The notes below the pieces were generated by a model, which had not been told where the DNA came from, searched no databases, and worked only from the letters and a program-made list of their open reading frames with translations. From an uncultured archaeon (GTDB taxonomy: Archaea > Nanobdellota > Nanobdellia > Pacearchaeales > GW2011-AR1), in assembly GCA_902385625.1 (NCBI GenBank), contig CABMGE010000027.1, forward strand, positions 19,173 through 83,172: 64,000 nt of DNA, given 5' to 3'. Below are positions 2,319-40,728 of this stretch, in pieces. Made by a program: the position numbers and the translations under genes. Each line of letters opens with the position of its first letter. Position 1 is the first letter of the stretch.

Positions 2319-2714
2319 TTAAAACGGCTTGACAATAATCTTGCCTTTTTTATAAGAAGGTTTTACACAACCATATTCATAAAGACCATTATGATCAAAA
2401 GTATAAGTATAATTTTGACCTCTAAATAATTTTATAGGAGCAGTCATATTTAAGGATTCAAAAGAAAGTTCCTGGACATTGGAATCTTTGTTCTTCCAAA
2501 TTACAGTATCTCCTCGCGCAATAGTGAGTTCAGGAGGCAAAAATCCAATAGCAGTTATCTCCACTATATAGACCTTTGATTTACATAAAGCATTATTAAC
2601 AGTTCCAACAGAAAGAGTTCTCTTACCATTAAGAGTAATTACAAGATATACTGCCATTAATGAAATTAAAATTAAAACTAGTATGCATATAAAAATCCAA
2701 GTTCTAGGTTTCAT
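2319..2714 (-). CDS. Membrane-anchored cupredoxin-like domain protein with degenerate copper site
   Basis: LTIARGDTVIWKNKDSNVQELSFES...YTFDHNGLYEYGCVKPSYKKGKIIV pattern of plastocyanin/azurin-like domains. Confidence 0.7.
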   Translation of the reverse strand: MKPRTWIFICILVLILISLMAVYLVITLNGKRTLSVGTVNNALCKSKVYIVEITAIGFLPPELTIARGDTVIWKNKDSNVQELSFESLNMTAPIKLFRGQNYTYTFDHNGLYEYGCVKPSYKKGKIIVKPF

Positions 2715-2797: not shown

Positions 2798-5044
2798 TTA
2801 ATTTCTCACAATAGAAAGTATCTGAGCTATTAAATAACCATATCCTTGTTTTTGCAAGAATTGTCTTATTACCTCAGTGGTTGCATATCCAGTATTAACT
2901 CCGCCACCTATAGAAGTTACTCCAACAAGTCTTCCATTATAAAAAAGACCTCCTCCACTTTCCCCACCAATTACTCCTTCATCATTTTGAGTCCAGATTC
3001 TTCCAGTACCAACCTGAGTAATAAGTGTTTCGGTTTGCTTAAAAGGACCAGCATTAGGACATCCAATTCTTAAGGCATATCCTCCCTCTTGAGGATCTCG
3101 CCCAGCAGAAGCAATAGGAACATAAGAAATCTTATCAATCTTAGTATCAAGCCTAATTAATGAAAGATCCCATCCACTCCCACTTTGAGAATCACTATAA
3201 CCTCCAAGAACAGTTCCAGAGTATTTTTTTCCATCAACAAAGTCCGCAGTTACTTTTTGGCCCTGAGTATCTGTAACATGCCCTGCAGTAAGAATTAAAG
3301 GATAACCCTCTTTATCCACTCCAACCACAGTCCCAGAACCTGCAATACCATAACCATCAACATGTAATCTAACACTTGCAAGAGGGGGATTTTTTCTTCT
3401 TTCTTCTTCTTCAATTCTTAGTCCCTCAACAGTTCTCTGAAGCGCAGCAATTGAATCTTTTCCATCATCCTGACTAATATAATTTGCAAGCTGTTCTTTA
3501 ACATTAGAATTTATGCTTTCATCATAAAACTTTTGCTGTTCAGGAGTTAACTGATTAAAAGCAACACTCGAGGACACATAAAAATCACCTTTAGCTTTAA
3601 AAAAATCCAAAGAACCTTTAAATGTACCCACTGGAACAGATGCATACTGATTACGATTATTTGAATAAACCTCAAAATCCTTTAACTTGTTCCCTTCATT
3701 ATCAACAAAAACAATCCTAGAATCAGGAGAAGACTTTCCATATTTAAAATCACTTTCAATTTGTTTTGTAGGATCAAAATAAAGCTCTCCACCCTCGCCA
3801 TAAAGACTATTTCTATCAAGAGTCGCAATACTTTCCCCACTTATTTTAATACTTGCAACATTTCCAGTTTCTGCCTTTTCAATAAAAACTTTTCCCTTAT
3901 TTGCCTGTACACTGGCAGTATTTTCAGAAGTTATACCAATTCCATAACGATTAGTTTCTGCAAAAAATACAGCAGGACCTTTTGCATTAAGTGAGGTAAG
4001 AATCATAGTATCTTTTCCATTACTATTCTTTCCAATAAAAATTGAGTCTAAATCCTTACTAATTTTATCTTTATCAAAGACTAAATAAACGTCTTTATTG
4101 TTTGCATTTTGAATAAAAAAATCGTTTTTTCCCTCGCTATTTTTTATAACTGCATTTTTATCATTAAAATAAAATCCATTATCTTTAAAATATAAAGTAC
4201 TAGTACCTCCGTTGGTTTCAAATAAATCACCATTAGGAAGAACAAGTGCTCCTCCGGATTTTGTACTAAATGAAAAAATAGTATCAGATTCTGCATCTTC
4301 GGTTTTTTTAGGTTCTTCTAGCTTTGTACCATCAGGAATAGTTATCCCTACTTTATTTCCATCTATACTAACTTTTGAATTAGCCGCAAGTTTATACTTA
4401 TATCCTCTTAAAACAATATCAGTCTGGCTGTCAACCTCAAAATTAGCATTTATAACTTTGCCTTGGGAGTTTATGTTAAAAGATCCCCCATCTTTTATAT
4501 TTGAAAAACTCTGTCTTTTAGAAAGATCTTTTTCAGGATAAAAACTAAAAGATCCTCCTCGAACATCAAGACTAACTTCCCCATTTTCAAGTTTTAATTG
4601 TGTCCCTGATTTAACTTCATGTTTATATCCATTAAGTGGAAAAGTCCAGTCTTCAGAAGCCTTAAAATCTGCTTTAATGAATTTTCCTTTAGAGTCAAAA
4701 TAAAACTTTCCACCAGGTTCAACACCTACATTATACGCCCAGTCTTCTCCTGATTTAGATAAAAGTGATCCATCTTTTTTAAATTCAACAACAATTCCTG
4801 TTCCACTTGAATCGGTTTTTATATTCACATTTTTTGCAGTTCCTATTTCGCTACCAGGATCACTAGAAAGACTTATTGTCTTGTAATTATCCCCCAGATC
4901 ATAACCATTCCCCCCCAAACCTTGGGCTTCAGGATTTCCCTCAATGTAAATACTTGATAATGCAAAAGTAAAACTTATTGTGAATAAAATTATTATAAAT
5001 ACCATGAATAAATTCAACTTTAATCTTAAGTTATTCGATTTCAT
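2798..5044 (-). CDS. Exported protein with N-terminal beta repeats and C-terminal trypsin-like serine protease domain
   Basis: Signal peptide; triad context ILTAGHV, WDLSLIRL, GESGGGLFYNGRLVGVTS. Confidence 0.85.
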   Translation of the reverse strand: MKSNNLRLKLNLFMVFIIILFTISFTFALSSIYIEGNPEAQGLGGNGYDLGDNYKTISLSSDPGSEIGTAKNVNIKTDSSGTGIVVEFKKDGSLLSKSGEDWAYNVGVEPGGKFYFDSKGKFIKADFKASEDWTFPLNGYKHEVKSGTQLKLENGEVSLDVRGGSFSFYPEKDLSKRQSFSNIKDGGSFNINSQGKVINANFEVDSQTDIVLRGYKYKLAANSKVSIDGNKVGITIPDGTKLEEPKKTEDAESDTIFSFSTKSGGALVLPNGDLFETNGGTSTLYFKDNGFYFNDKNAVIKNSEGKNDFFIQNANNKDVYLVFDKDKISKDLDSIFIGKNSNGKDTMILTSLNAKGPAVFFAETNRYGIGITSENTASVQANKGKVFIEKAETGNVASIKISGESIATLDRNSLYGEGGELYFDPTKQIESDFKYGKSSPDSRIVFVDNEGNKLKDFEVYSNNRNQYASVPVGTFKGSLDFFKAKGDFYVSSSVAFNQLTPEQQKFYDESINSNVKEQLANYISQDDGKDSIAALQRTVEGLRIEEEERRKNPPLASVRLHVDGYGIAGSGTVVGVDKEGYPLILTAGHVTDTQGQKVTADFVDGKKYSGTVLGGYSDSQSGSGWDLSLIRLDTKIDKISYVPIASAGRDPQEGGYALRIGCPNAGPFKQTETLITQVGTGRIWTQNDEGVIGGESGGGLFYNGRLVGVTSIGGGVNTGYATTEVIRQFLQKQGYGYLIAQILSIVRN

Positions 5045-5047
5045 TAT

Positions 5048-5923
5048 TTAATCATACTTGTTTGCAAAATAAAATAAATAATCTGCATTTTTTATTTTTG
5101 ATTTTTCATCAAGGATTCCAAATACAATTCCTTCTTTTGAGTTAGTCATTTTAATTTTCATATCATATTTATTTGACAAATTAGTAAGACAGCTCATGCA
5201 AATAGCATCTTGTTTTTCCATTTGCTTAGTCATAAGTTCTGTTATAAGAGAATGAATTTCATTGAGCCTTACCGGAATAACTGCTTCAAAATCCCGAATA
5301 GAATAAGTCTTTTCTCCCTTGGATATTTGTAATGGATAATTAACTAAAAAACTGACTTTTCCATTTTCAATAACTGCAGTTGTCCGAGCTTCTCCAGAAG
5401 TTACATTAAAATCAGGAAAATTTTTAAAATCATTTATGCAAAAATAAATAAAACTATCCATATATTTGGAAAGTTCATCTTCCATATTTTCTTTAGAAGG
5501 CATTAAATTTTCTTTTTCAATTAATTCTTCAGTCGGAGTTGCAGGCCCAGGAAGAGAAGGAACAATAGAAGATGAAGAATCATTAATTCTATAACCCTTA
5601 TCATAAAGATAAAATGCAAGACCTTCGTCAGAAATTTCATCAAAATTCATTTTAGGTTCAGGAGGAACAACAAATCCCCCAGTCTTTCCAATCTGATAAA
5701 TAGCATCATTCCCAACAGTTCTCACACACTCAGTTACAAAATTGTTTATAGGCTTAATATCTGGATCAATATTGGTTCCGGAAATTATAACCTTATTATT
5801 AGTAGATCTAAAAGTTAAAAACGTTGCAAGTCCTGCAACTATGAGTATTCCAAGAATAACAAATATAGTTACTTGAGAACGTTTGCAATTAAAAACCCCT
5901 CTCTTTTTCCAAACCTCTTTCAT
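5048..5923 (-). CDS. Pilin-like/class III-type N-terminus QVT protein, paralogue of 10831-11655
   Basis: N-term KRSQVTIFVILGILIVAGLATF; shared organisation with the 274-aa protein (CxxC 'CMSC'). Confidence 0.65.
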   Translation of the reverse strand: MKEVWKKRGVFNCKRSQVTIFVILGILIVAGLATFLTFRSTNNKVIISGTNIDPDIKPINNFVTECVRTVGNDAIYQIGKTGGFVVPPEPKMNFDEISDEGLAFYLYDKGYRINDSSSSIVPSLPGPATPTEELIEKENLMPSKENMEDELSKYMDSFIYFCINDFKNFPDFNVTSGEARTTAVIENGKVSFLVNYPLQISKGEKTYSIRDFEAVIPVRLNEIHSLITELMTKQMEKQDAICMSCLTNLSNKYDMKIKMTNSKEGIVFGILDEKSKIKNADYLFYFANKYD

Positions 5924-5984
5924 AAAATAAACAGGAAAATTACATTAATAAATGTTTTGAAAAAATAATTAAGATCAATTAAAA

Positions 5985-8663
5985 TTATCTTACGAACTTA
6001 CCATTCTGAATATAAATTGTTTTAGGAAACTCTTGAATATTTAAATTATAAAGCGCAGATGCCTGTGAACCTGTAATATAAATTCCATTTGAATTAGCTC
6101 CCTTGCCACAAGACTTACACCAAGAAGGTTCTGAAACCACTACAGGAATGAGTTTACCAGAAGATAACTCATTTAGTTTTTCTCCAGTAGCATATTTTAT
6201 ATTTGGACCACCAAAATTATTTTGACCTATATTTGAACTAAAAAAGCCCTGTCCATCAGGAACATATGTTCCTGCTGCACCCTGAGCACTAACCAACCTT
6301 CCTTTTGAAAAAAGATCTGATTCTGATTGACCATATTTAATCTGAGTTCCAGTTGCAGATGTTCCTGAACTGCTTCCAGCACCTGCTCCAGCACTAGGAT
6401 CACCAGAAGGAGCTTGAACTGAATCATCTCCACCAAGTAACTGAACAGGATCTTTATTCTGAGTATTTGAACCAGGAGTAGTTCCGGGATTGTTTCCAGG
6501 ATTACCTGTACTAAATTGACCATTAACCTGAGTTTTTCCTCCAGGAGTAACTCCAGGCCCAGTAGTACCAGCTCCAGCAATCTGAATTCCAAGACTTCCT
6601 AAAACCTGTGCAAATCTGCTTCCAGAACTAACACCTGCAGCAGTTGGATTAATAACAAGACCACCTAAAGGATCGTTTTCATATCTAACCTTCTGTGCTG
6701 CTCCACCACTAACTTCAACAATTTGATTTGCACCAAATCTTGAAACTTCAATGTTCTTGCTATTTGAAACATCTACTTTAATAGGAGAAGTTCCTGCATA
6801 ATTTCCTATAACTTCCATTCCATCTACACCATTTACAGTTATTTTAATTCCATTTATACCTGTAGATCCAGGTAATGGAAGATTAGTTCCTGCATAAGGA
6901 TTTAGAGAATCAATAGGAGTAGCTGGAGAAGGACATCCGCCAGGACCGCAACTACTACCTGAACTGCAACCGCCAGGCCCACAAGTACCTTTTGTAGTTG
7001 TAGGAGTTTGTGCAGAATTAATTATTGCATTTTCAGCACTAACATAACCAGTTAAACCTGCTGGAGCTTTTTGATTAAAATTAAGAAAGGCAACTTCCTG
7101 ATTTCCAATAGTTCTAAGTGATAAAACTTTAACATCTTTTGGATCTAATGGTTTTCCGCTAGAGTCATATGGATTATAATTATCTTGTAAAACAATACGA
7201 ACATCAACATTTTTTCCAGAATCTACCTGATTAGGATTTTTATCATCTCCAAAATTTTTTAAATTTACAGAAAAACTTCCCCCTTGTTCACTATTCTTAG
7301 TAAAAAAATTATTTCCAGCCCTTACCCAACCCTGGCCTGAAGAAGAGGTAATACCTAAATTTTTATCACTTATCTTAACATCTAATGCAACATTCTTTTC
7401 ATCACCATAATAAGGATTAAAAGTCATCCCATTTATTTTAACATTTCCAAAGTCCTGATTAGCAACTCCTCCAGATCCTGATCCAATATCAAATTCCATA
7501 AAACCTTTTATATTTCCTAAATCAGATCCTGTAAACTTCAAAGTTCTTCCAGTACTAGATCCAGTTAAACTAAGACCATCATTACTATCAGCAACAATTT
7601 TATTAGACCATATCTGTGCATTAGAGAGTTTTAAAAAATCTTTTCCTTTATATTGTAAAGTAAGTTCTTTACTATCTTTATCATAACCTAATGCAAGATT
7701 CTTTGAATTTCCAATATCTAATTTTTCAAGGCCAGTATATTTCTTTTTAGTAGGCCCAGTTGTTGCCCCTTTTGCAAAATCTTTTGAATTAGATTTAGCT
7801 GCATCAGGAAGTGCTTCATGAGAAATTGCAATTGCAAATCTCTCGCGAACTTCACTCATGCCCTTCATAGGATCATTTAAAGAAGTAATTAAATTTTTTA
7901 TTCCAGCTTCATCAGGAGTTTTTCCATCCTTGCCTTGCAAAGATTTCCACATATCATTAAAAAACTTATTTGTTTTTTCAAAATTTTTATCTCCAGTAGA
8001 ATACTGTTTATATGCAGATAAAAGAAAATCCTTTCTTACTGCCTGCAAATCTTTTATTGAAGTCGCAGTATCTTTTGCATTTGAACTTATAGCTTCTCCC
8101 CCTGTATTTTTCTCTGTAAAAGCAACTTTTAAAAATTTTAATCTTTCTTCATCAGGAAGTTTTTTAACTAAATCATCAAGTTTTCCTGCATCTTTTAATT
8201 TTGCAGCAGTTTTTGCAGCATTATCCCAAGTGAGTTTAGTCCATAAATCTGCAAATTGTTTATCTTCGAGTTTAAGGGTATTAGTTATATCTAAACTTTT
8301 TGAAGATAACATTTGAGTCCATAACTGATCAAGTTTAGAATTAGAAAATCCTGGCTTTGTCTGTGAAATAAGTCCATTAACACCATTCCAAAAAGATTTT
8401 GGATCTGTTTTAAGAAGTTCAGCAGCTTTATCAGGATATTTATACCATTCTTCAGGTTTTTTTACATCAAACTGAGGAGTAGTTGGAGCAGCAGGAGCAG
8501 CTCCAGTAGCCGCAGTTGTAGGAGTTGTTCCATAACCTCCAAAATTTCCAATACTAATTGGAGCTTGAGAAATAATATTTGAAATACTAAAAACAATAAC
8601 TAGAATAAATATAAAAAACATCACAGATAATGTTTTCTTTCTTTCCAGACCTTCTTTTTTCAT
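5985..8663 (-). CDS. Large exported protein with duplicated CGPGGC motif and C-terminal WCxxC thioredoxin-like domain
   Basis: N-terminal hydrophobic segment; TCGPGGCSSGSSCGPGGC; EPSWCKSCGK...FPKTIYIQNGKFV. Confidence 0.7.
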   Translation of the reverse strand: MKKEGLERKKTLSVMFFIFILVIVFSISNIISQAPISIGNFGGYGTTPTTAATGAAPAAPTTPQFDVKKPEEWYKYPDKAAELLKTDPKSFWNGVNGLISQTKPGFSNSKLDQLWTQMLSSKSLDITNTLKLEDKQFADLWTKLTWDNAAKTAAKLKDAGKLDDLVKKLPDEERLKFLKVAFTEKNTGGEAISSNAKDTATSIKDLQAVRKDFLLSAYKQYSTGDKNFEKTNKFFNDMWKSLQGKDGKTPDEAGIKNLITSLNDPMKGMSEVRERFAIAISHEALPDAAKSNSKDFAKGATTGPTKKKYTGLEKLDIGNSKNLALGYDKDSKELTLQYKGKDFLKLSNAQIWSNKIVADSNDGLSLTGSSTGRTLKFTGSDLGNIKGFMEFDIGSGSGGVANQDFGNVKINGMTFNPYYGDEKNVALDVKISDKNLGITSSSGQGWVRAGNNFFTKNSEQGGSFSVNLKNFGDDKNPNQVDSGKNVDVRIVLQDNYNPYDSSGKPLDPKDVKVLSLRTIGNQEVAFLNFNQKAPAGLTGYVSAENAIINSAQTPTTTKGTCGPGGCSSGSSCGPGGCPSPATPIDSLNPYAGTNLPLPGSTGINGIKITVNGVDGMEVIGNYAGTSPIKVDVSNSKNIEVSRFGANQIVEVSGGAAQKVRYENDPLGGLVINPTAAGVSSGSRFAQVLGSLGIQIAGAGTTGPGVTPGGKTQVNGQFSTGNPGNNPGTTPGSNTQNKDPVQLLGGDDSVQAPSGDPSAGAGAGSSSGTSATGTQIKYGQSESDLFSKGRLVSAQGAAGTYVPDGQGFFSSNIGQNNFGGPNIKYATGEKLNELSSGKLIPVVVSEPSWCKSCGKGANSNGIYITGSQASALYNLNIQEFPKTIYIQNGKFVR

Positions 8664-8713
8664 TTATTAATAAAATAACCGTAATTTAAAAATCTTTGTA
8701 AGCGAAATAACTT

Positions 8714-10765
8714 TTAGTTTCTAGGTATCCAAGGATTAGTCCGATCATTTCTATCAGGACCGACCCTATATGCAATAACCTTATTATCTTGAATTTGTAA
8801 CTGAGTTGGATAGGAATAAGTATCTTTAGAAGGGGCTATGGAAGGATCTGGTTGAAATCCTAATTGAGCTGCTTGTTGTCCAGTTACATATAAACCATCA
8901 CTTTTTACATTTTTAGCACAAGTTGGACACCAACTAGGTTCGGTCATTTCTACCTCGAGTACTTTTCCTTTAGAAAGATCAGCAACACTACTATCTTTTA
9001 CATAATTTATATCAGGTTTACCTTGAAACATATTTTTTCCTACAGGATCTTGATAAACCTCATAAGAAGGTTTAGTCTCAATACCAGTAGTTTCTTTAGG
9101 AGTTTCTGAAGCAGCCCCTTCATCTCCTCCAAGTAAAACAACTGCTTTCCCTTTTTCAGCGCTAACAGAAGCAGCAACCCCTTTATCTTCCTCAGTAACT
9201 CCCTTAAGAGCATCTTCTACTCCTTTAACAAGACCAGCCAATTCTTTTCCAGCTTCGCCAGAAGTAGCATCTTTACCAGGAAGTTTATTTGGATCACCAG
9301 TTGCAACTCTCTGATTTCCAGCAGAACTTACAGCATTTAAATCTGCTTTGGATAAAGCCCATTGAGAAACATCACCACCATTTGCATGCATCCATAAATT
9401 TCCATAAGCATCATAATATTTTATATCTCCAGTTCCAGAAGCATATATTTTATGTTCAAGAGCTTTTGCATAATCATTCATAGTAACAGGATTTGTTTTA
9501 TCATTATTGTTTACAACAATATAATTATCCTTTCCAATAAATATCTCATTTGCTCCTAAACTTTTTTGAAACGCAGCATCTTTGCTAATATCTTTGGTTC
9601 TGTCCATGCTAACTGACTCTCCATTGCTAACTGAAAAAGAATAATCAATAAACTGTGTCTTTGCATCAGCCAGGTTATAATCAATTTTAGGAACTGCAAA
9701 TCTAACTCTTCCATCATCAACAGTCATTTTTCCATTAGGATCAATTGTAAAAGAAGCAAACCCATTTTTTCCACCCTCTCCTTGAGGCTGAACAAAAGAA
9801 TATCCGGATTTAGAGTCTCCAATTAATAGAGAAGGTATTTTTGAAAGATCATTTCTCATATCTGCAAGAGTATTATATGTCTGAGGATTATTATCAATCA
9901 TTGTAGCCTTAAGGCTGTTCCCATCTTTCCCAGTTTTTAATTCAAATACAAAACTTCCATCTCTTTCTCCAAACCCTGCATTAATTGATTTTTTTGCACC
10001 TTCATAAGAAAGTTGCACTTTTTCATCAAGGCTAAGACCTGGACTGATGTCTAAATATTGAGTTTTCCCACCTTTGACAGTTTGACCTATTACCAAATTG
10101 CCTTTTGGAGGAACAATTTCAGATTTCATAGTAGTTTTACCATTAGCATCTTTTACAGGATTATATTTTACAGAACCAATATCGCTAGATATACTTTTTA
10201 CATTTTTATTAAGAGTCACTTCACCATTAGGTTTACCATCTTTTGTAAATTGAAGTTTAATAGAATTTGTTTTTCCCTCTTTATTTTTTTCAACTTTTAA
10301 TCCAACTCCAGCAGGCAGATTACTTACATCTAGATTTTTTCCAAATTGATCTTTAAAGGCACTTTTTAAAATATCTCCTTGAACAGATTTTCCAGAACTA
10401 TCTGATTTGCCTTCTGCTTCTTTAAAGAATTTTTGAGATTCCTCCGTAGGAAGAGCAGCATAAATTTTAGCCTTTTGATCAGCTGTAGCTCCAGACCAAA
10501 TCCTTACCTTATCCTCGATTTTTCCATCACTCCAAGTCTTTATTGCAATATCCTTCATAGGCTCTCCATTAACCTTTTGTTCTAAGACAAATACAAATGT
10601 AGTGGGAGTATAGGTATCAAGATAGCCATGCATAGGAGTTCTATCTTCATCAGAAGTCGGAGCTATTACTCCTGCCGAAATAAAGCAGATTAACAAAATT
10701 AAAAATAAGAATCCTGCGAATAATTTTAATTCATTTTTACCCAAAACATCTCTTTTATTTTTCAT
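8714..10765 (-). CDS. Large exported protein with C-terminal WCxxC thioredoxin-like domain, paralogous C-terminus to 5985-8663
   Basis: Signal peptide; EPSWCPTCAKNVKSDGLYVTGQQAAQLG...YPTQLQIQDNKVI aligns to the 892-aa neighbour. Confidence 0.7.
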   Translation of the reverse strand: MKNKRDVLGKNELKLFAGFLFLILLICFISAGVIAPTSDEDRTPMHGYLDTYTPTTFVFVLEQKVNGEPMKDIAIKTWSDGKIEDKVRIWSGATADQKAKIYAALPTEESQKFFKEAEGKSDSSGKSVQGDILKSAFKDQFGKNLDVSNLPAGVGLKVEKNKEGKTNSIKLQFTKDGKPNGEVTLNKNVKSISSDIGSVKYNPVKDANGKTTMKSEIVPPKGNLVIGQTVKGGKTQYLDISPGLSLDEKVQLSYEGAKKSINAGFGERDGSFVFELKTGKDGNSLKATMIDNNPQTYNTLADMRNDLSKIPSLLIGDSKSGYSFVQPQGEGGKNGFASFTIDPNGKMTVDDGRVRFAVPKIDYNLADAKTQFIDYSFSVSNGESVSMDRTKDISKDAAFQKSLGANEIFIGKDNYIVVNNNDKTNPVTMNDYAKALEHKIYASGTGDIKYYDAYGNLWMHANGGDVSQWALSKADLNAVSSAGNQRVATGDPNKLPGKDATSGEAGKELAGLVKGVEDALKGVTEEDKGVAASVSAEKGKAVVLLGGDEGAASETPKETTGIETKPSYEVYQDPVGKNMFQGKPDINYVKDSSVADLSKGKVLEVEMTEPSWCPTCAKNVKSDGLYVTGQQAAQLGFQPDPSIAPSKDTYSYPTQLQIQDNKVIAYRVGPDRNDRTNPWIPRN

Positions 10766-10830
10766 TTTCTTTTTTCTTAAATAACTTTGATATTTATATT
10801 TTTTATTATCTTCTAATAATATCTTTAAAT

Positions 10831-11655
10831 TTAACCTGTTGATGCAGGACTTGGAATTGAAGATATTTCCTCATTGTTTCCCGCATTATATTTATTTAAC
10901 CATTCAAAATAATAGGGTTCAGAGGTAGTTCGATTATCCATTAAAAGCATTAAAAGTGAATTGTCTTTTGCATTAAAGCTGTAAACATATAAATCTTTTT
11001 CTTCAGCCATATCAGCAACGCAAGTTATACAAATCATATTTGGATCTGCCTTATGTGAATCAGTAATATATTTTCCAATTTCAATTATATCAGAGAGTTT
11101 AGAATTCTCATTTACACTAGCATCCTTCATCTCAATCCTCATCGTATTACCTTCCTTGCTAATTGTAACCGGCATATCAATTAAAAAATTAACACTTCCT
11201 TTTTGTATTGAAGCTTTTGTTTTAGAAGTTCCATGTTTTATATCAAAACCAGTTGCATTAACTCCGCGAAAGCATTCTAAAAATTCTTTTTCATACTCTT
11301 TGCCAAGTTCTTTTTCAATAACAGTTTTGTCAGGCATTAAAAAACTTCCCTGATAATAATAGTAAGGAATAAAAGTCCATCCCAAATCAAAAGACTTTTC
11401 AGGTTTATCAGAATATCCTCCCTGAATTCCGATTTTTTCAAGGGAGCTTTTTGCAGAATATTCAGTACAAGTCACAATTGAACTTCTCAAATTATCCATA
11501 GTGGGCTTTATATCCTCTCTTAAAAAGAAATCGTTATTTGAACTGCCTGAATTTTTAGTAAAAAAATAATAACCAGCTCCTCCACCTGCCACAACTAAAA
11601 TTGCAATTATTATAAAAACCGTAACCTGTCCGCGATTCAAAACCCCTCTTTTCAT
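10831..11655 (-). CDS. Pilin-like QVT protein (RGQVTVFIIIAILVVAGGGAGYYF)
   Basis: Basic residue + QVTVF + hydrophobic helix; CITC motif equivalent to CMSC in paralogue. Confidence 0.65.
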   Translation of the reverse strand: MKRGVLNRGQVTVFIIIAILVVAGGGAGYYFFTKNSGSSNNDFFLREDIKPTMDNLRSSIVTCTEYSAKSSLEKIGIQGGYSDKPEKSFDLGWTFIPYYYYQGSFLMPDKTVIEKELGKEYEKEFLECFRGVNATGFDIKHGTSKTKASIQKGSVNFLIDMPVTISKEGNTMRIEMKDASVNENSKLSDIIEIGKYITDSHKADPNMICITCVADMAEEKDLYVYSFNAKDNSLLMLLMDNRTTSEPYYFEWLNKYNAGNNEEISSIPSPASTG

Positions 11656-11761: not shown

Positions 11762-13465
11762 ATGGTTAGCACTGATTACAAAATATTAAAAGAAATAATA
11801 TTAATCTTATTTTTTTCTATATTTATTATAGCAGTATCAGAAGTTTCTGCAGTACAAACATTTAGCATAGTCGCAAATACAGGTTCAGGGGGAAATATTA
11901 CTCCAGCAGGAACAACAATAGTAAACTCCGGGGACAATCAAATCTATACAATAACTCCTAATTCATATTTTTATGTCTTAAATGTATTTGTAGATAATTT
12001 TTCTATAGGGCCGATTCAAAATTATACATTTGCACATGTTTCAGCAAATCACACAATTTCAGCAACATTCACAAATTATCCTACAATGACATTCAAATAC
12101 ATTAATTCATCAGCAAGTCAGGGAGGAACAATTTCTCCTCTTGGAACCATATCATTTACTCCAATAATGAAAAATCAAGCATATACAATAACTCCTGATC
12201 CAGGATTTGGAATTGCAAATGTCTTAGTGGACGGCGTTTCTAAAGGAGCACTATCAACCTATTCATTTACTAACTTTTCAGGAGACCATGAAATATATGC
12301 TATGTTTGGATCTCCCCCTACAACAAGTGATGATTTTAATGAAAAAAAACAAGCCATATGCCAAAAAACAAATCAAACAATAACCCTAAGTGAACAATGT
12401 GGAACCTCTGGATGCAACTGGACAAAATATTGCTTAGAAAAGAATTGTAATCCTGCAAATGGAACTATCTATAATGGGCCTGTAACAATTGGAGAAGGAA
12501 AAACCTATTTCAGATATCAAACTAAATCAAATTCAGGCATAATGCAAAACATTACTGAAAGGATCTTTGTAATCGATCCAACTTGTTTTTCAAATCCAAG
12601 CATGAGTGTTAATACTGCAACAGAGAATGAAATAAATGATACAGATTATTATATTAGTTTTAATCCAACACTTAATGGAACAATACAAATGTCAGTTAGA
12701 AAAACTAAATCAGAACCTGATTTAAATCCGAATTCAGGAGTCACTTCTTTAGGAAAATATCTTGAAATTATTGCACCGCAATTAGTTGGAAACATTTCAA
12801 ATGCAACAATAAAAATAATGTTCTCTAATGATGAAATTTCTGCAGCAGGAATAGAAAAATCAACTTTAAAATTATGGTTCTATAATCTAGCAACATCAAG
12901 TTGGCAAGTAATAGACTCCCTGAGTGGAGGAATTAATGAAACAGACAACTATGTCTGGGCAAACACAAATCACTTTTCAATCTGGGGAATATTTGGAAGC
13001 ACCCCTGCTCCTCCAGAAAATCCTCCTGCACCTTCAGGAAGTGGTGGGGGAAGCGGAGGTGGTGGTGGAGGCGGTGGAGGAAGTAGCATAAGCTGTACAA
13101 CTAATTGGAAATGCACTGAATGGAGTCCATGTATAGAAAGCAGACAAACGCGAAGTTGTTCAAAAGCAAATGAACATTGTTCAGTTAGTGAAAGTAAACC
13201 AATTGAAAGCCAAGAATGTATTGTAAAACTTGCTTCAAATTATACAAAAAATGATTATGCAGAGAATATTACACAAATCCCTGCAAACTTAAGTGATTCA
13301 AATACTAGTTCAGGAATTTCAGGAATAACAGGAGCAGTTATTGGTGCAGTTAACAAAAACAAAAAAGCAATAATGGGAATTGTAATTACCTTAATAATTA
13401 TTATAGTAGCCTCATTAATCTCATTTAGAGAAAGAAAAACATCTAAAAAACATATTAAAAAATAA
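11762..13465 (+). CDS. Surface protein: two InlB/Listeria-type beta repeats, poly-Gly linker, Cys-rich TSP1-like segment, C-terminal TM
   Basis: Repeats GGNITPAGTTIVNSGDNQIYTITPNSYF / GGTISPLGTISFTPIMKNQAYTITPDPGF; GGGSGGGGGGGGG; CTTNWKCTEWSPCIESRQTRSC; ITGAVIGAV plus TM and KKHIKK. Confidence 0.8.
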   Translation: MVSTDYKILKEIILILFFSIFIIAVSEVSAVQTFSIVANTGSGGNITPAGTTIVNSGDNQIYTITPNSYFYVLNVFVDNFSIGPIQNYTFAHVSANHTISATFTNYPTMTFKYINSSASQGGTISPLGTISFTPIMKNQAYTITPDPGFGIANVLVDGVSKGALSTYSFTNFSGDHEIYAMFGSPPTTSDDFNEKKQAICQKTNQTITLSEQCGTSGCNWTKYCLEKNCNPANGTIYNGPVTIGEGKTYFRYQTKSNSGIMQNITERIFVIDPTCFSNPSMSVNTATENEINDTDYYISFNPTLNGTIQMSVRKTKSEPDLNPNSGVTSLGKYLEIIAPQLVGNISNATIKIMFSNDEISAAGIEKSTLKLWFYNLATSSWQVIDSLSGGINETDNYVWANTNHFSIWGIFGSTPAPPENPPAPSGSGGGSGGGGGGGGGSSISCTTNWKCTEWSPCIESRQTRSCSKANEHCSVSESKPIESQECIVKLASNYTKNDYAENITQIPANLSDSNTSSGISGITGAVIGAVNKNKKAIMGIVITLIIIIVASLISFRERKTSKKHIKK

Positions 13466-13540
13466 ACCATGCCCCCACCGCCGACCATCCCTTTGTGGGA
13501 AATTTTGGGGACCCAAAGATTAATGAAGTATCCTTTTAAA

Positions 13541-14101
13541 TCAGTTTAACTCTATACTATTAGCTATTTTTTTTGCTTCGTTTAATTCTAAAATTGCCCC
13601 CGAAGTATTGGAACTATCCTTCGGCAGAGTAAATGATACTAAAAGAAGATGATGACCTTTTCCAATAAACCACCAATGCATAAGAAGGGGTTTATTATCC
13701 TCAATAGGCTCATCAATATACTCCATAACATATTTAGAATTTTCAGTATAAATCAGGGAATTTTTAAATTTATAACTTTGTTCCTCAAAATAGGACTTTG
13801 AAATAGTATCAGAAGTTGTATTTAACAAAGTAATTCTTAAAGTTCCTAAACCCTTATTTTTATAAAGCATTAAAGTACCTTCTTCATCAAATCCTTGGTT
13901 CCAATTTTCAGGAAATAGTAAAGTGAATTCATTTCCTGGAGAAATAAATTTCTTGAAATTTATGGGATTTATTTCATCTAAATTTTTATTCTTTTGAGGC
14001 AAATTAATATTATTTATAGAATATACCAAAAAGACTATAACAATTAAAAGTAAGACCAAGATAATGATTATAGATAAGATTAATAAATTTCTTCGATTCA
14101 T
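13541..14101 (-). CDS. Membrane-anchored PsbP-like domain protein
   Basis: N-terminal TM; FISPGNEFTLLFPENWNQGFDEEGTLMLYKNK typical of PsbP-like proteins. Confidence 0.55.
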   Translation of the reverse strand: MNRRNLLILSIIIILVLLLIVIVFLVYSINNINLPQKNKNLDEINPINFKKFISPGNEFTLLFPENWNQGFDEEGTLMLYKNKGLGTLRITLLNTTSDTISKSYFEEQSYKFKNSLIYTENSKYVMEYIDEPIEDNKPLLMHWWFIGKGHHLLLVSFTLPKDSSNTSGAILELNEAKKIANSIELN

Positions 14102-32488: not shown

Positions 32489-32884
32489 TTACAATCCATC
32501 AATAATTCCCTTAAGATTATAAGAAGTTATATAATTTTTATCTATATCATTTATTGATCCAGGGTTGCGCTTTAAAAAATTATCAGGACAAAGTACAAGT
32601 CGTTCCGGAGTATAATTAAGCTTTTTATATTTCTCTCCAGAGATTAAATGATCTCCCTCTGAATTTTCTTTAAATCTAACTCCAAATAAAGTAGGAGGAT
32701 TATTTGAAATAAGAAAACCAACTAACTTTTCACCAACTATAACTCTTCCTTTAGTATTTTTGTCTCCAGAAAGAACATTCGTAATTAAAACACTATCAAC
32801 AAGCTGTGAAAGATCAGAATAATCACGAATAGGTTGTATTTCACTTCTTCCTAAATTAAGCCTATAAGTCTCAACAGTTGACAT
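32489..32884 (-). CDS. Hypothetical protein, last gene of the AAA+ operon
   Basis: ORF, 8 nt downstream of the next gene. Confidence 0.7.
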   Translation of the reverse strand: MSTVETYRLNLGRSEIQPIRDYSDLSQLVDSVLITNVLSGDKNTKGRVIVGEKLVGFLISNNPPTLFGVRFKENSEGDHLISGEKYKKLNYTPERLVLCPDNFLKRNPGSINDIDKNYITSYNLKGIIDGL

Positions 32885-32892
32885 TTTTACTC

Positions 32893-33726
32893 CTATTCAT
32901 TTTTTATATGAAGTCCTGAAACATAAATTAATGCTTCTTTACTCATATAATCAGTGAGTAGTCTCATTTGTATTAATTTCTCTGTATTTAACCATTCACT
33001 TGCTTTGCTAATATTCTGCTTGTTATACATATCAAAACCAAGTTCATCAAATCTCTTGAAAAGTTTAGAAAGTTTTTCAGTATTTTCATGAAAATTATTT
33101 GCATTTTCTTTTCTCTCATTCTCATAGAGTTTCATAAATAGTGAAGAATAACCGCCAATATTTAATCTATTTAAATCAAAACCAAGGGATTTTAGAGAAT
33201 TTAAATTATTTTCAGAATGTTGAAATAATCTTTGTGCAGAACTTATACTGTCATCTTTATTGTTGTCATAAATATTTGCTGCAAAATTAAGATAAGAATC
33301 ATTAGAAAATACATAAACCCTGTTATCAGGAGTATTATGATACTGATTTAAGGGTTTTCCAAAATTAGAATTAAGAGTCAAGCTATCTCTAACTAAACCT
33401 TTTTCTAAATTACCAACATTTGTTAAATGGCCAAGTAAATTTGAAAAAAGTTTAAGTTTATTATTGGAAATGGCATTTTTATAAAAAACAGAATAATAAA
33501 CAGGACTGTCCACAGGATAGTTGGGAAAAACAACTGCATCTAAAACATTTGCAATCGGAAGAAGATCTTCAATTTTTACTGCATGCATGTCTTTTTTAGA
33601 AAGTCCTTCAAGATACTCTAAAAAACCTGCATCTTCTTCAAATCTTCCAAGTCTTTCTCGAAGTTTTTCATTTTTGTCTTTAGATAAAAATAATTCAAGT
33701 CCCTGGCAAGTTTGTTCCAGATTCAT
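32893..33726 (-). CDS. Hypothetical protein, AAA+ operon
   Basis: ORF overlapping upstream gene by 4 nt. Confidence 0.75.
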   Translation of the reverse strand: MNLEQTCQGLELFLSKDKNEKLRERLGRFEEDAGFLEYLEGLSKKDMHAVKIEDLLPIANVLDAVVFPNYPVDSPVYYSVFYKNAISNNKLKLFSNLLGHLTNVGNLEKGLVRDSLTLNSNFGKPLNQYHNTPDNRVYVFSNDSYLNFAANIYDNNKDDSISSAQRLFQHSENNLNSLKSLGFDLNRLNIGGYSSLFMKLYENERKENANNFHENTEKLSKLFKRFDELGFDMYNKQNISKASEWLNTEKLIQMRLLTDYMSKEALIYVSGLHIKNE

Positions 33727-35579
33727 TGTTCCTCCACCTCTCTAATTTCTTCAAGTCTTTCAGAAATAGACTTTTCATGTTTTCTATTTCTTAAATATCC
33801 AATTCCTTTTTTTCCTCCGTAATATATCCCAAATCCAGCTCCAGCATAAATCATAAGCCATGGAAGTAAACCAAGCTGTATTCTTTCTCGAAGTAATGGA
33901 GAAGACTTAAATTGATCTTTAAATTCATCAGAAATTCCATATTCTCTTGCCAAATCTTCCGCATAAGGTCTTCCTGTTGTTGTAAGTATTCTTATAATAT
34001 CATGTTTTGCAGCAAGAGTTGATTCCTGGGTTAGTGCTCTGCTTAAATTCTGGATATTTAAATCTTCAAATAACATAATATCACTTCTCTGATCATTAAT
34101 AAGCCCTAAAAGTGAATGCTTTCCATTTCCGCGATGAACCTGGTCAGGAATCATATTTTCTATTGCAGCACAAAGCCTGAATAATTTTTTCCCCTGGTTA
34201 GTATCTTTTGAAGGAGACATAAATGAATAATTTATAGTAAATGTAGTATCTTGATCAAGCCTTGAGTCTCCAGATAACTGCTCGATTTCCATTCTTTCAT
34301 CATGAGTTGTTCTGCAAACAACACTCCCGATTAGTTCTTTATTTTTATCTATTTTCCCATCTCCATTTAAATCAAGATAATAAGAATATAAAATATCTTG
34401 GCCATATCTTAAAACAAAGTCACCAATTGTAATTTTTGCTATATCTCCAAATTTATCTCTGAGTGTATATCCGCCGTTGTTGTATTTATCAAAAGGATAA
34501 AGAGTATCGTCTCCACTTCCAAAACTAAATTCACTAAGACCAGGATATCTTCCAGGCCATAAATCCCACTGATTATCTATTCTAAGCCTTTTTTCGTCTC
34601 TTGATCCTATCCAATAATGAAGTGCTCTTTTAAAAAAACCAGGATTCTCTCCAAGATAAACAGTGCCACCCTGAGGCAATATTTTCAAATATCCATCTTC
34701 AAAAGTAGAATAAATTGTTTTCTTACTCATTTTCTCTTCAATAGCACGAATCTCATTAACAAGATCTTCTCTTTCTTTTCCACCAGTTGCTTCAGAACTG
34801 TCTATTTTCCTTATTTTATCTAAAAGTTCTTTTGCAAGTTGATTATTATTCGGATCTTTTCCATAATCTTCAAGTGAGGTTCCAGATCTAAAAGTTTCTT
34901 TTCCAAAAAACCAGCCTAAAGGAATAGTTCTTCTTTCAACAAGTCTGTTTATAACTTCCCGAGTTTTATCAGGATGATCAATTACATCAATGTCTATTTC
35001 AGTAAGTCCCCTTTCAGGAGCAGTTTTATAAACAACATAATTTTGCGGAGATTTTGAATTAGAACCTAAAACAACCTCTGCAAACTGTTCTCGAAAATTC
35101 AAGCTTCCACCAATTCTAAGTCCAGCCTGAAATTTCTCAGGTTTTTGAGTTGATGATGCAATTCTTATTTTTTGGGAATTATCAAGATTATAGTAATCGA
35201 TATCTCCTCTTCTCTCTCTTGTTGCTTCAAATAAATAAGTTCCAACTTTACTTTCAACTCCTCCACCAGCATAAAATTTTGTAACAGACTCTCTGTCTGC
35301 CCTTGTACCAGTACTTTTATCTTTATTTCCTGCAACATAAGTAACATTAGAAGATCTGTATAAAACATTTCTTTCAGGATAATTTTGTCTTTTTGTAAGA
35401 AAATCTTTTGTTAAATAAAGACTAGCTGCTCCACCAATTAAAGCAACAGCTGCTCCTGCATAAGCTGCCCTTTTCAAATATTTTTTTGCATTGCTCCATC
35501 TACCTTCAGGTCTTTCCTCAAGAGGTTTTTCTCTGTTTGCTTTTATTTTTGCGAGTCTATCGCTAATGCTTTCTTCCAT
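33723..35579 (-). CDS. Double-anchored membrane protein (TM near each end, large central domain with DxNxDG Ca-binding-like loop), AAA+ operon
   Basis: N-term AAYAGAAVALIGGAASLYL; C-term LPWLMIYAGAGFGIYYGG; YYLDLNGDGKIDKNKE; matching tails ESISDRL/KSISERL. Confidence 0.8.
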   Translation of the reverse strand: MEESISDRLAKIKANREKPLEERPEGRWSNAKKYLKRAAYAGAAVALIGGAASLYLTKDFLTKRQNYPERNVLYRSSNVTYVAGNKDKSTGTRADRESVTKFYAGGGVESKVGTYLFEATRERRGDIDYYNLDNSQKIRIASSTQKPEKFQAGLRIGGSLNFREQFAEVVLGSNSKSPQNYVVYKTAPERGLTEIDIDVIDHPDKTREVINRLVERRTIPLGWFFGKETFRSGTSLEDYGKDPNNNQLAKELLDKIRKIDSSEATGGKEREDLVNEIRAIEEKMSKKTIYSTFEDGYLKILPQGGTVYLGENPGFFKRALHYWIGSRDEKRLRIDNQWDLWPGRYPGLSEFSFGSGDDTLYPFDKYNNGGYTLRDKFGDIAKITIGDFVLRYGQDILYSYYLDLNGDGKIDKNKELIGSVVCRTTHDERMEIEQLSGDSRLDQDTTFTINYSFMSPSKDTNQGKKLFRLCAAIENMIPDQVHRGNGKHSLLGLINDQRSDIMLFEDLNIQNLSRALTQESTLAAKHDIIRILTTTGRPYAEDLAREYGISDEFKDQFKSSPLLRERIQLGLLPWLMIYAGAGFGIYYGGKKGIGYLRNRKHEKSISERLEEIREVEEQ

Positions 35580-35599
35580 TTTGTATTTTAAGCTCCTTG

Positions 35600-36463
35600 T
35601 TAATATTTGTCGTATTTACTTCTAAGATCTGCTCTTTCTTTATCTCGTGCATCTTTCTCAGCTTGTATTCTTGATTGTCTTCTTTTTCTTAATGCATCAA
35701 CAGCAGAACTAAAAGTATTTCCAACACTTTCAACAGCATCAGCTATTTTCTCTCCATAGTTATTCACAGGTTTAGCTTCAGAATCAGATTTAATATCTGT
35801 ACCATCAGCGCAAACATTTGCTTCTATAACTTCAGGAGTTATTTCTATTTTAGCAGTAGGGGAATAATTTCTTATGATCTCAAGCAACTTTCCATCAGCA
35901 GTTAACTCTTTTGCCATTTTATCAAGATCTTTTTCATCTCTTGATCTTGTAATAACATCTTTTGCATAAACTAGTCCTCGTCCAACCTGAAATCCAGCCC
36001 ATAAAGATGGTGCCTGATAAAATGTTTCTCCAAATGCAACAACTCCGTCTCCCTTTCCAGTTAAAAGACTTGATGCAACTACACCAATATCTCCTAAAAA
36101 TTCAAGGCCAAACGCAGCAGTTAATTTTCCTCTCCATGAAAGATTGTTTATTCTTTCATCTTCTTTATATGATTCAACAGTATCTTTAACTCTTGCATAA
36201 AAAGACTGAGTTTTTGGTTCAGAAGATATTCCGTTTCTTGTAAAATAATCTCTTGCTTTCATAACTGAATCACAGAATCTTTCTTCAGATGAATTAGATT
36301 CAACTGAATTATTTGCAATATATTCAAGTGCTTCAACTTCTGCAAGTTTATCTTTTACTCTCTGTTCAGTATATCTTGCTGCATTTCTAGAGAACAATCT
36401 ATCTCCAATTGTAATAGAAACTCCTGCAAGAAAATGTGCAGACGCTTCATTATACCATGTCAT
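35600..36463 (-). CDS. Hypothetical protein with possible membrane segment, AAA+ operon
   Basis: ORF in gene string. Confidence 0.75.
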   Translation of the reverse strand: MTWYNEASAHFLAGVSITIGDRLFSRNAARYTEQRVKDKLAEVEALEYIANNSVESNSSEERFCDSVMKARDYFTRNGISSEPKTQSFYARVKDTVESYKEDERINNLSWRGKLTAAFGLEFLGDIGVVASSLLTGKGDGVVAFGETFYQAPSLWAGFQVGRGLVYAKDVITRSRDEKDLDKMAKELTADGKLLEIIRNYSPTAKIEITPEVIEANVCADGTDIKSDSEAKPVNNYGEKIADAVESVGNTFSSAVDALRKRRQSRIQAEKDARDKERADLRSKYDKY

Positions 36464-36464
36464 T

Positions 36465-37769
36465 TTACTTAATACCTCCTTTCAAGGAACTTAAAACTTG
36501 AGAGCAAACATATCTTTGTCTGTTAAGTGGAAACCCTGGAAAATCAACTCTGAATTTTCTTGGATTTGATTCATAAACTCTTGTTACATCACTGGAATCA
36601 AGTTCCGCAAGCATATGATTAACTATTTCAGGCTTTCCAAAAGGCTTTTTTGTGGCAACAGAAAGTTTTAATTTTGTTTCAGGAGTTGTATGTTTTACTG
36701 CATCTTCAATTTCAGTGCTGGTATTATCCATAAGGCCTGCAATGTTTCTAAGTTCTCTCCAGCATTCAGGAAGTTTTCCAGAGTGTTCAATTACTTTCCT
36801 TTTCTTTTCATAAGGAGGAAGACTAACAACATCAATACCTTCTTCTAGTAAAACTTCATTTTCAATTTCAGAAATTCTCTGTTCAATTAATCCAGAGTCA
36901 TATTTCAAAAATTTATATCTATGTAATGTTTTAAGCAAATCTTTATCATGAAGGTCAAGGCCAATTACTTCTTCTCCAAGATCCCTGACTTCTCCCTGAT
37001 GGTGAAAAACATAAATAGCATTTAAGTCATCATCATTTTTGAAATTTCTAAGGCTATGGATTCCTCTAAAAAATTCAACATAAAAACAATGAACTTCTCT
37101 TTTGATTGGAAAAATATCTGAAATATTTCTAAGATCTACATTTCCAACTTTTCCAACAAGACCCCTCATTTGGGAAATATATTCCTCATTTAATGCATTA
37201 TCAGTTCCAAAACTGTTTTTTTCTCCAAGTCTATCAGACATTTCCTTAAGTTGCCCCATTAATTGTCCTGCTCCATCAAGACTATCAAGGCTTATTTTAA
37301 CTGTTCGAAGTTGCATTAAATCATAAGGTGATTGAAAAACAGTTATTCCATTATCAAGTTCTCCAAATAAAGCATCTGACTGGGTTAAATCTTCAATAGT
37401 ATGTCTTGCCTGACGATAAACCTCATCATATAATCCCTCTTCATAAGAAGTTTGAGGTGCAATTAATGGAGCATCTTTTTGATCAGGAGACAAAACAATC
37501 ATATATCTATTTGCAGATTTTATATTAAGATAATTTTCTCCAAATTCAAGCCTGTCTTGATATTTTCTTTTTAAATGATCACATACTTCAGGAGAAAGTC
37601 CTCTTTTATCAACTCTAAATGAATCAAGTTCACTTTCAAAACCAAAAACTTTTGAAAGAACTGCATTATATCTTTGAGCAAGTTCTCCATCTACATGAAA
37701 AAGTCCTTGATTAATAAGTCCAAGCTTTTCAAGATCAATATCCCTTTCAGGAATAATTATGTCAGTCAT
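36465..37769 (-). CDS. Hypothetical soluble protein, AAA+ operon
   Basis: ORF overlapping AAA+ gene by 4 nt. Confidence 0.75.
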   Translation of the reverse strand: MTDIIIPERDIDLEKLGLINQGLFHVDGELAQRYNAVLSKVFGFESELDSFRVDKRGLSPEVCDHLKRKYQDRLEFGENYLNIKSANRYMIVLSPDQKDAPLIAPQTSYEEGLYDEVYRQARHTIEDLTQSDALFGELDNGITVFQSPYDLMQLRTVKISLDSLDGAGQLMGQLKEMSDRLGEKNSFGTDNALNEEYISQMRGLVGKVGNVDLRNISDIFPIKREVHCFYVEFFRGIHSLRNFKNDDDLNAIYVFHHQGEVRDLGEEVIGLDLHDKDLLKTLHRYKFLKYDSGLIEQRISEIENEVLLEEGIDVVSLPPYEKKRKVIEHSGKLPECWRELRNIAGLMDNTSTEIEDAVKHTTPETKLKLSVATKKPFGKPEIVNHMLAELDSSDVTRVYESNPRKFRVDFPGFPLNRQRYVCSQVLSSLKGGIK

Positions 37770-39616: not shown

Positions 39617-39621
39617 TTTAT

Positions 39622-40710: not shown

Positions 40711-40728
40711 CTTAGAATAAGATAATAT

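What the first reader, a model, noticed from the sequence alone, without database searches (positions are those of the whole stretch)
5048..11655. Duplicated two-gene module: pilin-like QVT protein plus giant exported WCxxC protein
Seen: 274-aa and 291-aa proteins share the RxQVTxF+helix N-terminus and a CxxC near the C-terminus (CITC / CMSC); 683-aa and 892-aa proteins share the C-terminal block SKGKVLEVEMTEPSWCPTCAK...SDGLYVTGQQAAQL / SSGKLIPVVVSEPSWCKSCGK...SNGIYITGSQASAL. All four are in one same-strand run but in the order small-large-large-small, so this is not a simple tandem copy. Inference: a surface assembly with small membrane-anchored subunits and large redox-tipped exported subunits.
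Basis: partly seen in the sequence, partly recalled or inferred. Interest (0 to 1): 0.7.

Follow-up and report, generated by a model that had tools for sequence, protein, structure and literature searches.

The report
Pilin-like carriers with swappable exported enzymes
In tiny DPANN archaea (Pacearchaeota and Woesearchaeota), a widespread unnamed family of pilin-like membrane proteins is almost always encoded directly upstream of a large exported protein whose tip enzyme varies from copy to copy, which suggests a modular surface-effector system that nobody has tested.

Summary
The four proteins are real, but the module is parsed wrongly. Relatives carry the two modules separately. The small 'QVT' family has no Pfam or NCBIfam model, yet occurs in 244/282 sampled genomes of the phylum. 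It reaches 15 copies in this Pacearchaeota genus. In this genus, 79 of 86 QVT genes are followed on the same strand by an exported protein (68 of ≥400 aa), against 90/493 control genes. QVT has a class III prepilin-like N-terminus ([RK][GAS]|Q[VIL][TS]xF, Phe replacing Glu+5), and the genus has pilus ATPase/TadC genes and a prepilin peptidase. Partners are Sec-type soluble proteins sharing a stem but differing at the C-terminus: zincin, trypsin, caspase, CAP, HINT, GGACT. Here the tip is a shortened thioredoxin-like domain, probable rather than proven. Near-identical QVTs carry unrelated partners. Zincin partners are followed by a dedicated membrane-anchored protein (8/8). Best reading: QVT is a pilin-like anchor or carrier for swappable exported enzymes, like TcpB–TcpF. 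Pilus involvement, toxicity and redox activity are inferred.

The parts
10831..11655 (-). QVT274: pilin-like small membrane-anchored protein, head of module 1
   Evidence: class III prepilin-like N-terminus RGQVTVF; invariant Q10, C63, C128 across 82 homologues; AF2 mean pLDDT 90.6; no Pfam/NCBIfam family
8714..10765 (-). 683-aa exported partner 1a with shortened thioredoxin-like C-terminal domain (WCPTC)
   Evidence: N-terminal hydrophobic signal sequence; C-terminal block shared with 892-aa protein, E 4e-15
8717..9115 (-). C-terminal thioredoxin-like domain region of the 683-aa protein
   Evidence: alignment A4; hhalign of A4 to a genuine Pacearchaeal thioredoxin, probability 91.6%, E 8e-7
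5985..8663 (-). 892-aa exported partner 1b (paralogue of 683 aa) with shortened thioredoxin-like C-terminal domain (WCKSC)
   Evidence: orthologue-like 836-aa protein in G079 next to a QVT gene (L059)
5988..6299 (-). C-terminal thioredoxin-like domain of the 892-aa protein
   Evidence: AF2 pLDDT 80, pTM 0.74; the 50 best Foldseek PDB matches listed are nearly all thioredoxins or thioredoxin-fold proteins but E >= 0.07 and TM about 0.4
5048..5923 (-). QVT291: pilin-like small membrane-anchored protein, head of module 2 (not tail of module 1)
   Evidence: 3 bp before the 748-aa gene; nearest QVT among sampled modules is the one heading the trypsin module of G079 (L060)
2798..5044 (-).
   Evidence: PF13365 E 3.4e-11, residues 569-709; related QVT+trypsin modules in G079 (L060) and G071 (L079)
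2319..2714 (-). 131-aa membrane-anchored cupredoxin, recurring third gene; copper His ligands lost in this copy
   Evidence: PF13473 E 9e-8; homologues follow QVT modules in G079 (L059:593-1000) and G071 (L079:15648-16025); alignment

Best explanation
The locus holds two neighbouring copies of a modular surface-protein system of Nanoarchaeia. Each module is a QVT protein followed by one or more large exported proteins. Shown by sequence: QVT carries a class III prepilin-like N-terminus with Phe instead of Glu at +5; the partner genes are adjacent and nearly always downstream; partners are soluble beyond their signal peptide; and their C-terminal tips are exchanged for different enzymes, here a shortened thioredoxin-like domain (module 1) and a trypsin-like peptidase (module 2). 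Inferred: QVT is trimmed by the A24 prepilin peptidase, sits in the membrane or in a type IV-pilus-like assembly as a minor pilin-like anchor or carrier, binds its neighbour's product after Sec export, and displays or releases it at the cell surface to act on other cells or host material.
For: Adjacency in own genus: 79/86 QVT genes followed by a same-strand exported ORF, 68 of >=400 aa, median gap -4 bp; controls 90/493 and 32/493. Wider DPANN set: 81/94 versus 130/591. Signal motif in 173 of 190 members: R/K at -2, G/A/S at -1, T/S at +3, F at +5 in 161. Q, C63 and C128 invariant in 82 members. Prepilin peptidase PF01478 in 20/20 and T2SSF platform in 19/20 genomes of the genus; own genome has one locus with a secretion-ATPase-like ORF, two T2SSF ORFs and flanking pilin-like ORFs. 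56 of 61 complete partners have no hydrophobic segment past residue 70. 83 of 281 partner homologies stop well before both C-termini. Near-identical carriers with unrelated cargo: L057 pair, normalised similarity 0.94 versus 0.03; L010 pair 0.74 versus 0.02. Precedent: minor pilin TcpB binds the Sec-secreted TcpF encoded in the same operon (PMC9565799).
Against: Glu+5, usual in class III pilins, is absent; the predicted QVT fold has no credible Foldseek match to any solved pilin (best TM about 0.15); QVT genes are not in the ATPase/TadC locus. Many partner tips (39 of 66 modules by motif, most of those still unmatched after Pfam) have no recognised enzyme, so 'effector' is not general. No interaction, export or processing has been measured.
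Confidence: 0.5

Rival explanations
1. Polymorphic-toxin-like conflict system: the exported partners are effectors with exchangeable C-terminal toxin or peptidase tips, used against competing or host cells, with dedicated protective genes; QVT is the delivery part.
For: Shared stems with different C-termini; Hint-type, caspase, trypsin, zincin, CAP and GGACT tips; copy-number differences of 1 to 15 within one genus; zincin-tipped partners of one subtype are followed by a conserved C-terminally anchored protein family in 8/8 loci and nowhere else among 715 ORFs, a possible immunity or inhibitor gene.
Against: No classical nuclease, deaminase or pore-forming toxin domain was found; most modules have no obvious small immunity gene; trypsin and thioredoxin tips act outside the cell and need not be toxic; the Hint matches are partial and two are truncated near the ORF end.
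Confidence: 0.2
2. Plain surface enzymes and adhesins: QVT is a single-pass anchor for extracellular enzymes used to digest or remodel host surface and scavenge peptides; no pilus machine and no antagonism.
For: Proteases dominate the recognised tips; Pacearchaeota are thought to be symbionts with few biosynthetic genes (general knowledge); universal core copies sit next to giant cysteine-rich proteins.
Against: A simple anchor does not explain the strict Q+1, T/S+3, F+5 motif at a prepilin-like cleavage position, nor an own pilin-like N-terminus with E+5 on the 1229-aa core partner.
Confidence: 0.22
3. Extracytoplasmic disulfide or redox module: the WCxxC tips and CxxC of QVT relay electrons, with the cupredoxin as partner.
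For: Probable thioredoxin-like tip, with canonical WCGPC in the G072 copy; cupredoxin in two loci with such tips (the window and G079); CxxC in 53 of 88 small QVTs.
Against: The tip is in 4 of 206 genomes of the order; QVT's CxxC is shared with modules whose partners are proteases; the window's cupredoxin has lost its copper histidines; the domain lacks most of the helix after the active site.
Confidence: 0.08

Closest known systems
Type IVb pilus minor pilin plus secreted protein (TcpB-TcpF of Vibrio cholerae, CofB-CofJ of ETEC; PMC9565799)
   Same: a pilin-type protein and a Sec-exported soluble protein encoded together, cognate pairing
   Different: no sequence or fold relation found; QVT has a class III-like archaeal signal lacking E+5; cargo far larger with exchangeable enzymatic C-termini; many dispersed copies; the TcpF hook was not tested here
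Archaeal type IV pilins with class III signal peptides and DPANN 'dark matter' pilins (PMC4858521, PMC6393860)
   Same: K/R-G/A-Q-x-S/T cleavage-site motif and hydrophobic helix; dispersed class III genes outside the main pilus locus are known; nanoarchaeal pilus ATPases were reported without identifiable cognate pilins
   Different: Phe at +5 instead of Glu, larger conserved globular domain with an invariant cysteine pair, linkage to giant exported cargo
Polymorphic toxin systems (PMC3482391)
   Same: shared stem with recombined C-terminal enzymatic domains, Hint-type domains, a cargo-linked accessory gene
   Different: no recognised toxin domain in most partners, no bacterial delivery domain, immunity unproven
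PilY-type pilus-tip proteins in archaea (DUF2341; PMC4858521)
   Same: large exported protein associated with pilins
   Different: no DUF2341 match listed among partner C-terminal parts; enzymatic tips instead of adhesin

Membership tests
Class III (archaeal type IV) pilins | positively charged N-terminus, G/A before Q+1, S/T at +3, hydrophobic helix | tested here: met
   173 of 190 QVT members counted; R/K at -2 in 155, G/A/S at -1 in 171, T/S at +3 in 165
Class III (archaeal type IV) pilins | Glu at +5 | tested here: not met
   F in 161 of 173, never E
Class III (archaeal type IV) pilins | genome encodes prepilin peptidase and pilus ATPase/platform | tested here: met
   PF01478 20/20, T2SSF 19/20; ATPase-like ORF next to the platform genes, by inspection
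Class III (archaeal type IV) pilins | fold similar to solved pilins | tested here: not met
   confident model (pLDDT 90.6), no pilin among Foldseek PDB matches
Class III (archaeal type IV) pilins | cleavage and filament incorporation | not testable with these tools
   needs experiment
Thioredoxin-like domain (tips of 683 and 892 aa) | [W]CxxC after a strand and a downstream cis-Pro strand | tested here: met
   WCPTC, WCKSC, WCDEC, ACGPC, WCGPC with conserved Pro
Thioredoxin-like domain (tips of 683 and 892 aa) | profile-level similarity to thioredoxins | tested here: met
   hhalign probability 91.6% (single comparison); A2 search of the order picked up a true thioredoxin in G170, E 2e-4; best PDB profile hit is a thioredoxin but E 0.6
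Thioredoxin-like domain (tips of 683 and 892 aa) | complete thioredoxin fold (TM > 0.5) | tested here: not met
   TM about 0.4, E >= 0.07; helix after CxxC shortened
Polymorphic toxin system | shared N-terminal stem with different C-terminal domains | tested here: met
   83 of 281 partner homologies exclude both C-termini
Polymorphic toxin system | recognised toxin domains | tested here: inconclusive
   peptidases, caspase, CAP and Hint-type matches, but no nuclease/deaminase/pore-former; most tips unmatched
Polymorphic toxin system | cognate immunity gene downstream | tested here: inconclusive
   only for one zincin subtype: an accessory membrane protein 8/8, function unknown
TcpB/TcpF-type pilus-dependent secretion | minor pilin binds N-terminal secretion signal of cognate cargo | not testable with these tools
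   no multimer prediction; partner N-termini were only listed, not tested for a common motif

The most novel reading that the evidence does not exclude
A previously undescribed, class-wide archaeal surface-effector system in which pilin-derived carriers lacking the assembly glutamate each hold a giant exported protein with an exchangeable enzymatic or toxin tip, some with dedicated protection genes: the main host- or competitor-facing arsenal of Woesearchaeota and Pacearchaeota.
Probability: 0.3. Interest if true: 0.85.

Novelty: new variant of a known kind. Interest (0 to 1): 0.62.

Why it matters
How DPANN archaea attach to and exploit their hosts is poorly understood, and PMC4858521 reports nanoarchaeal pilus ATPases with no identifiable cognate pilins. 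A carrier family present in most sampled genomes, unnamed in Pfam and NCBIfam, with linked enzymatic cargo gives concrete genes to test: which cargo is displayed, whether pili carry it, and whether the accessory genes protect the producer.

Tried and rejected
Deaminase reading of SEPSWCxxC (it resembles the PCxxC half of a deaminase site): dropped by inspection because no HxE/CxE motif was seen upstream; the hhalign, model and Foldseek results all point to thioredoxin. Zinc finger: a single weak PDB match, dropped. Arc_PepC_II as the prepilin peptidase: no match above cut-off in the genus; PF01478 found instead. QVT as a solved pilin fold: no PDB match. RuBisCO and other cytosolic hits in the partner scan were treated as neighbours swept in by the distance rule. 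G023 and G170 hits of the C-terminal profile are not module members: G170 is a stand-alone thioredoxin, and the G023 hit examined lies in an ORF I could not relate to the domain. Co-folding of QVT with partners was not possible.
Full report
Observation. All four ORFs are real and at the stated coordinates on the minus strand. The small pair and the large pair are each homologous; the C-terminal block of the large pair gives E = 4e-15. Pfam and NCBIfam name none of the four. Intergenic gaps in transcription order are 65, 50, 61 and 3 bp, then 83 bp to the cupredoxin. The run therefore continues past the reported end with a 748-aa exported protein bearing a Trypsin_2 domain (E = 3e-11) and a 131-aa cupredoxin.

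Correct parsing. The genome is 1.34 Mb, 88% complete; the named records matched by the family are Pacearchaeota, Woesearchaeota and other Nanoarchaeota, and several same-genus contigs match Pacearchaeota records by length. In the relative G079, QVT+trypsin (L060) and QVT+thioredoxin-like+cupredoxin (L059) lie on different contigs, and in G071 the order is QVT+trypsin+cupredoxin (L079). The window thus holds two independent modules side by side: [QVT274, 683, 892] and [QVT291, 748] plus cupredoxin. The small-large-large-small order is a consequence of cutting off the last large gene.

The QVT family. The own genome has about ten copies on C7, C13, C14, C15, C20 and C27. The family is in 56/56 sampled genomes (56 genera) of the taxonomic family, 20/20 genomes of the genus with 1-15 matches each, and 244/282 genomes sampled in the phylum. 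In 82 aligned members Q10, C63 and C128 are invariant, and F14, G79, G80 and F252 nearly so. The N-terminus reads [RK][GAS]|Q[VIL][TS]xF in most of 173 counted members, which is the class III prepilin pattern with Phe in place of Glu at +5. The AF2 model (82 rows) is confident, pLDDT 90.6, with an N-terminal helix 8-35 and an alpha/beta domain, and has no credible Foldseek match in the PDB.

Partners. I called ORFs in 63 sequences (the window, six own-genome loci, and loci of ten or so relatives of the genus). Of 86 QVT genes with a downstream ORF, 79 are followed by a same-strand ORF with an N-terminal hydrophobic segment and 68 of these are at least 400 aa; 493 control ORFs in the same loci give 90 and 32. 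In 79 loci from the public genome scan the numbers are 81 and 72 of 94, against 130 and 35 of 591. The two sets share some contigs and are not independent. 'Exported' rests on a hydropathy threshold, not on a signal-peptide predictor. Of 61 complete partners 56 have no hydrophobic stretch beyond residue 70, so most are soluble once exported and need something else to hold them.

Tips. Pfam on partner C-terminal parts finds Trypsin_2, Peptidase_C14 (E 1e-15), CAP (5.9e-9, at the very C-terminus), GGACT (6.7e-10, at the very C-terminus) and Hint-family domains; motif inspection adds HExxH zincins in nine modules. Of 281 partner homologies, 83 cover the N-terminal or middle part but not the last 120 residues of either protein. 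QVT genes that are nearly the same can head unrelated partners: the two QVTs on G079 contig 7 have normalised similarity 0.94 with partners at 0.03, and the two on own contig 20 have 0.74 with 0.02. Overall, QVT and partner similarity still correlate (rho 0.41, 0 of 999 permutations), driven at least in part by orthologous core modules.

Thioredoxin-like tip. The C-terminal block is found in four genomes of 206 in the order (own, G064, G072, G079), always near a QVT gene. The active-site variants are WCPTC, WCKSC, WCDEC, ACGPC and WCGPC, followed by a conserved Pro-strand. hhalign to a genuine thioredoxin gives 91.6%. The AF2 model has pLDDT 80, and nearly all of the 50 best PDB matches listed are thioredoxins or thioredoxin-fold proteins, but with E >= 0.07 and TM about 0.4. 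I call it thioredoxin-like with a shortened helix after the active site, probable and not proven. G064 carries a neighbouring ORF with a fuller thioredoxin match (PF00085 E 0.0019, below cut-off).

Machinery. All 20 genomes of the genus have an A24 prepilin peptidase and 19 have T2SSF platform proteins. The own genome has a secretion-ATPase-like ORF with two T2SSF-type ORFs, flanked by other pilin-like ORFs (the ATPase was recognised by inspection). QVT genes lie elsewhere. [quoted passage not shown]

Accessory genes. Eight zincin partners of one subtype are each followed by a homologous ~200-250 aa protein with a C-terminal membrane anchor; among 715 ORFs the profile finds these eight and only two weak others (E 0.001 and 0.013), and leave-one-out scores are E <= 5e-25. 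It could be an inhibitor or immunity protein, or a docking protein. The cupredoxin follows QVT modules in three genomes; in the window it lacks the copper histidines that the two relatives keep.

Mechanism and confidence. Shown: family, adjacency, signal motif, solubility prediction, tip exchange. Inferred: prepilin processing, physical pairing, surface display, target. The closest working model is the TcpB-TcpF type of pilus-linked secretion (PMC9565799), which this resembles in layout only. Failing the E+5 and fold tests lowers the claim that QVT is a pilin, not the claim that it works as a membrane carrier.

Noticed in passing
L009:989-1735, L062:195-875, L068:2407-3063, L075:9868-10482, L081:2843-3475, L104:5320-5928, L105:9458-10045, L109:4256-4846: Conserved C-terminally membrane-anchored ~200-250 aa protein directly after HExxHxxDF zincin-tipped partners, absent elsewhere among 715 ORFs; candidate immunity, inhibitor or docking protein.
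   Followed up: partly
2319-2714: Cupredoxin whose histidine copper ligands are replaced (NVQELS; CVKPSYK) while homologues after QVT modules in G071 and G079 keep them.
   Followed up: partly
L009:9409-13098 (1229 aa) and homologues in L069, L112: The giant cysteine-rich core partner itself has a pilin-like N-terminus (KTAGMSYLEISILIV, Glu at +5).
   Followed up: no
L083:8482-11979 and L098:5462-9100: Partners ending about 60 residues into a Hint-type domain; in L083 a downstream exported ORF (13200-13607) looks like the rest of a Hint domain, so frameshift or split gene is possible.
   Followed up: no
L069:2224-6191, L105:9458-11610, L109:2662-4211: Zincin-type QVT loci also carry several other pilin-like small exported genes (KKAQxxIQEMAFM, KKAIGMSFNWIFAI, KKAQGSSIGISFS).
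   Followed up: no
window 5985-8663 (892 aa); L057:417-2063; L058:3386-5293; L073:185-1945: CGPxGC motifs occur in four partner proteins and in no other ORF of the 715 examined.
   Followed up: no
11762-13465: 567-aa exported protein with marginal PGF-pre-PGF match (25.3 bits, cut-off 28) and C-terminal anchor, divergent from the QVT locus.
   Followed up: no
32489-41862: Same-strand run of eight ORFs including an AAA ATPase (37766-39664) and a DUF6638 protein (36465-37769).
   Followed up: no
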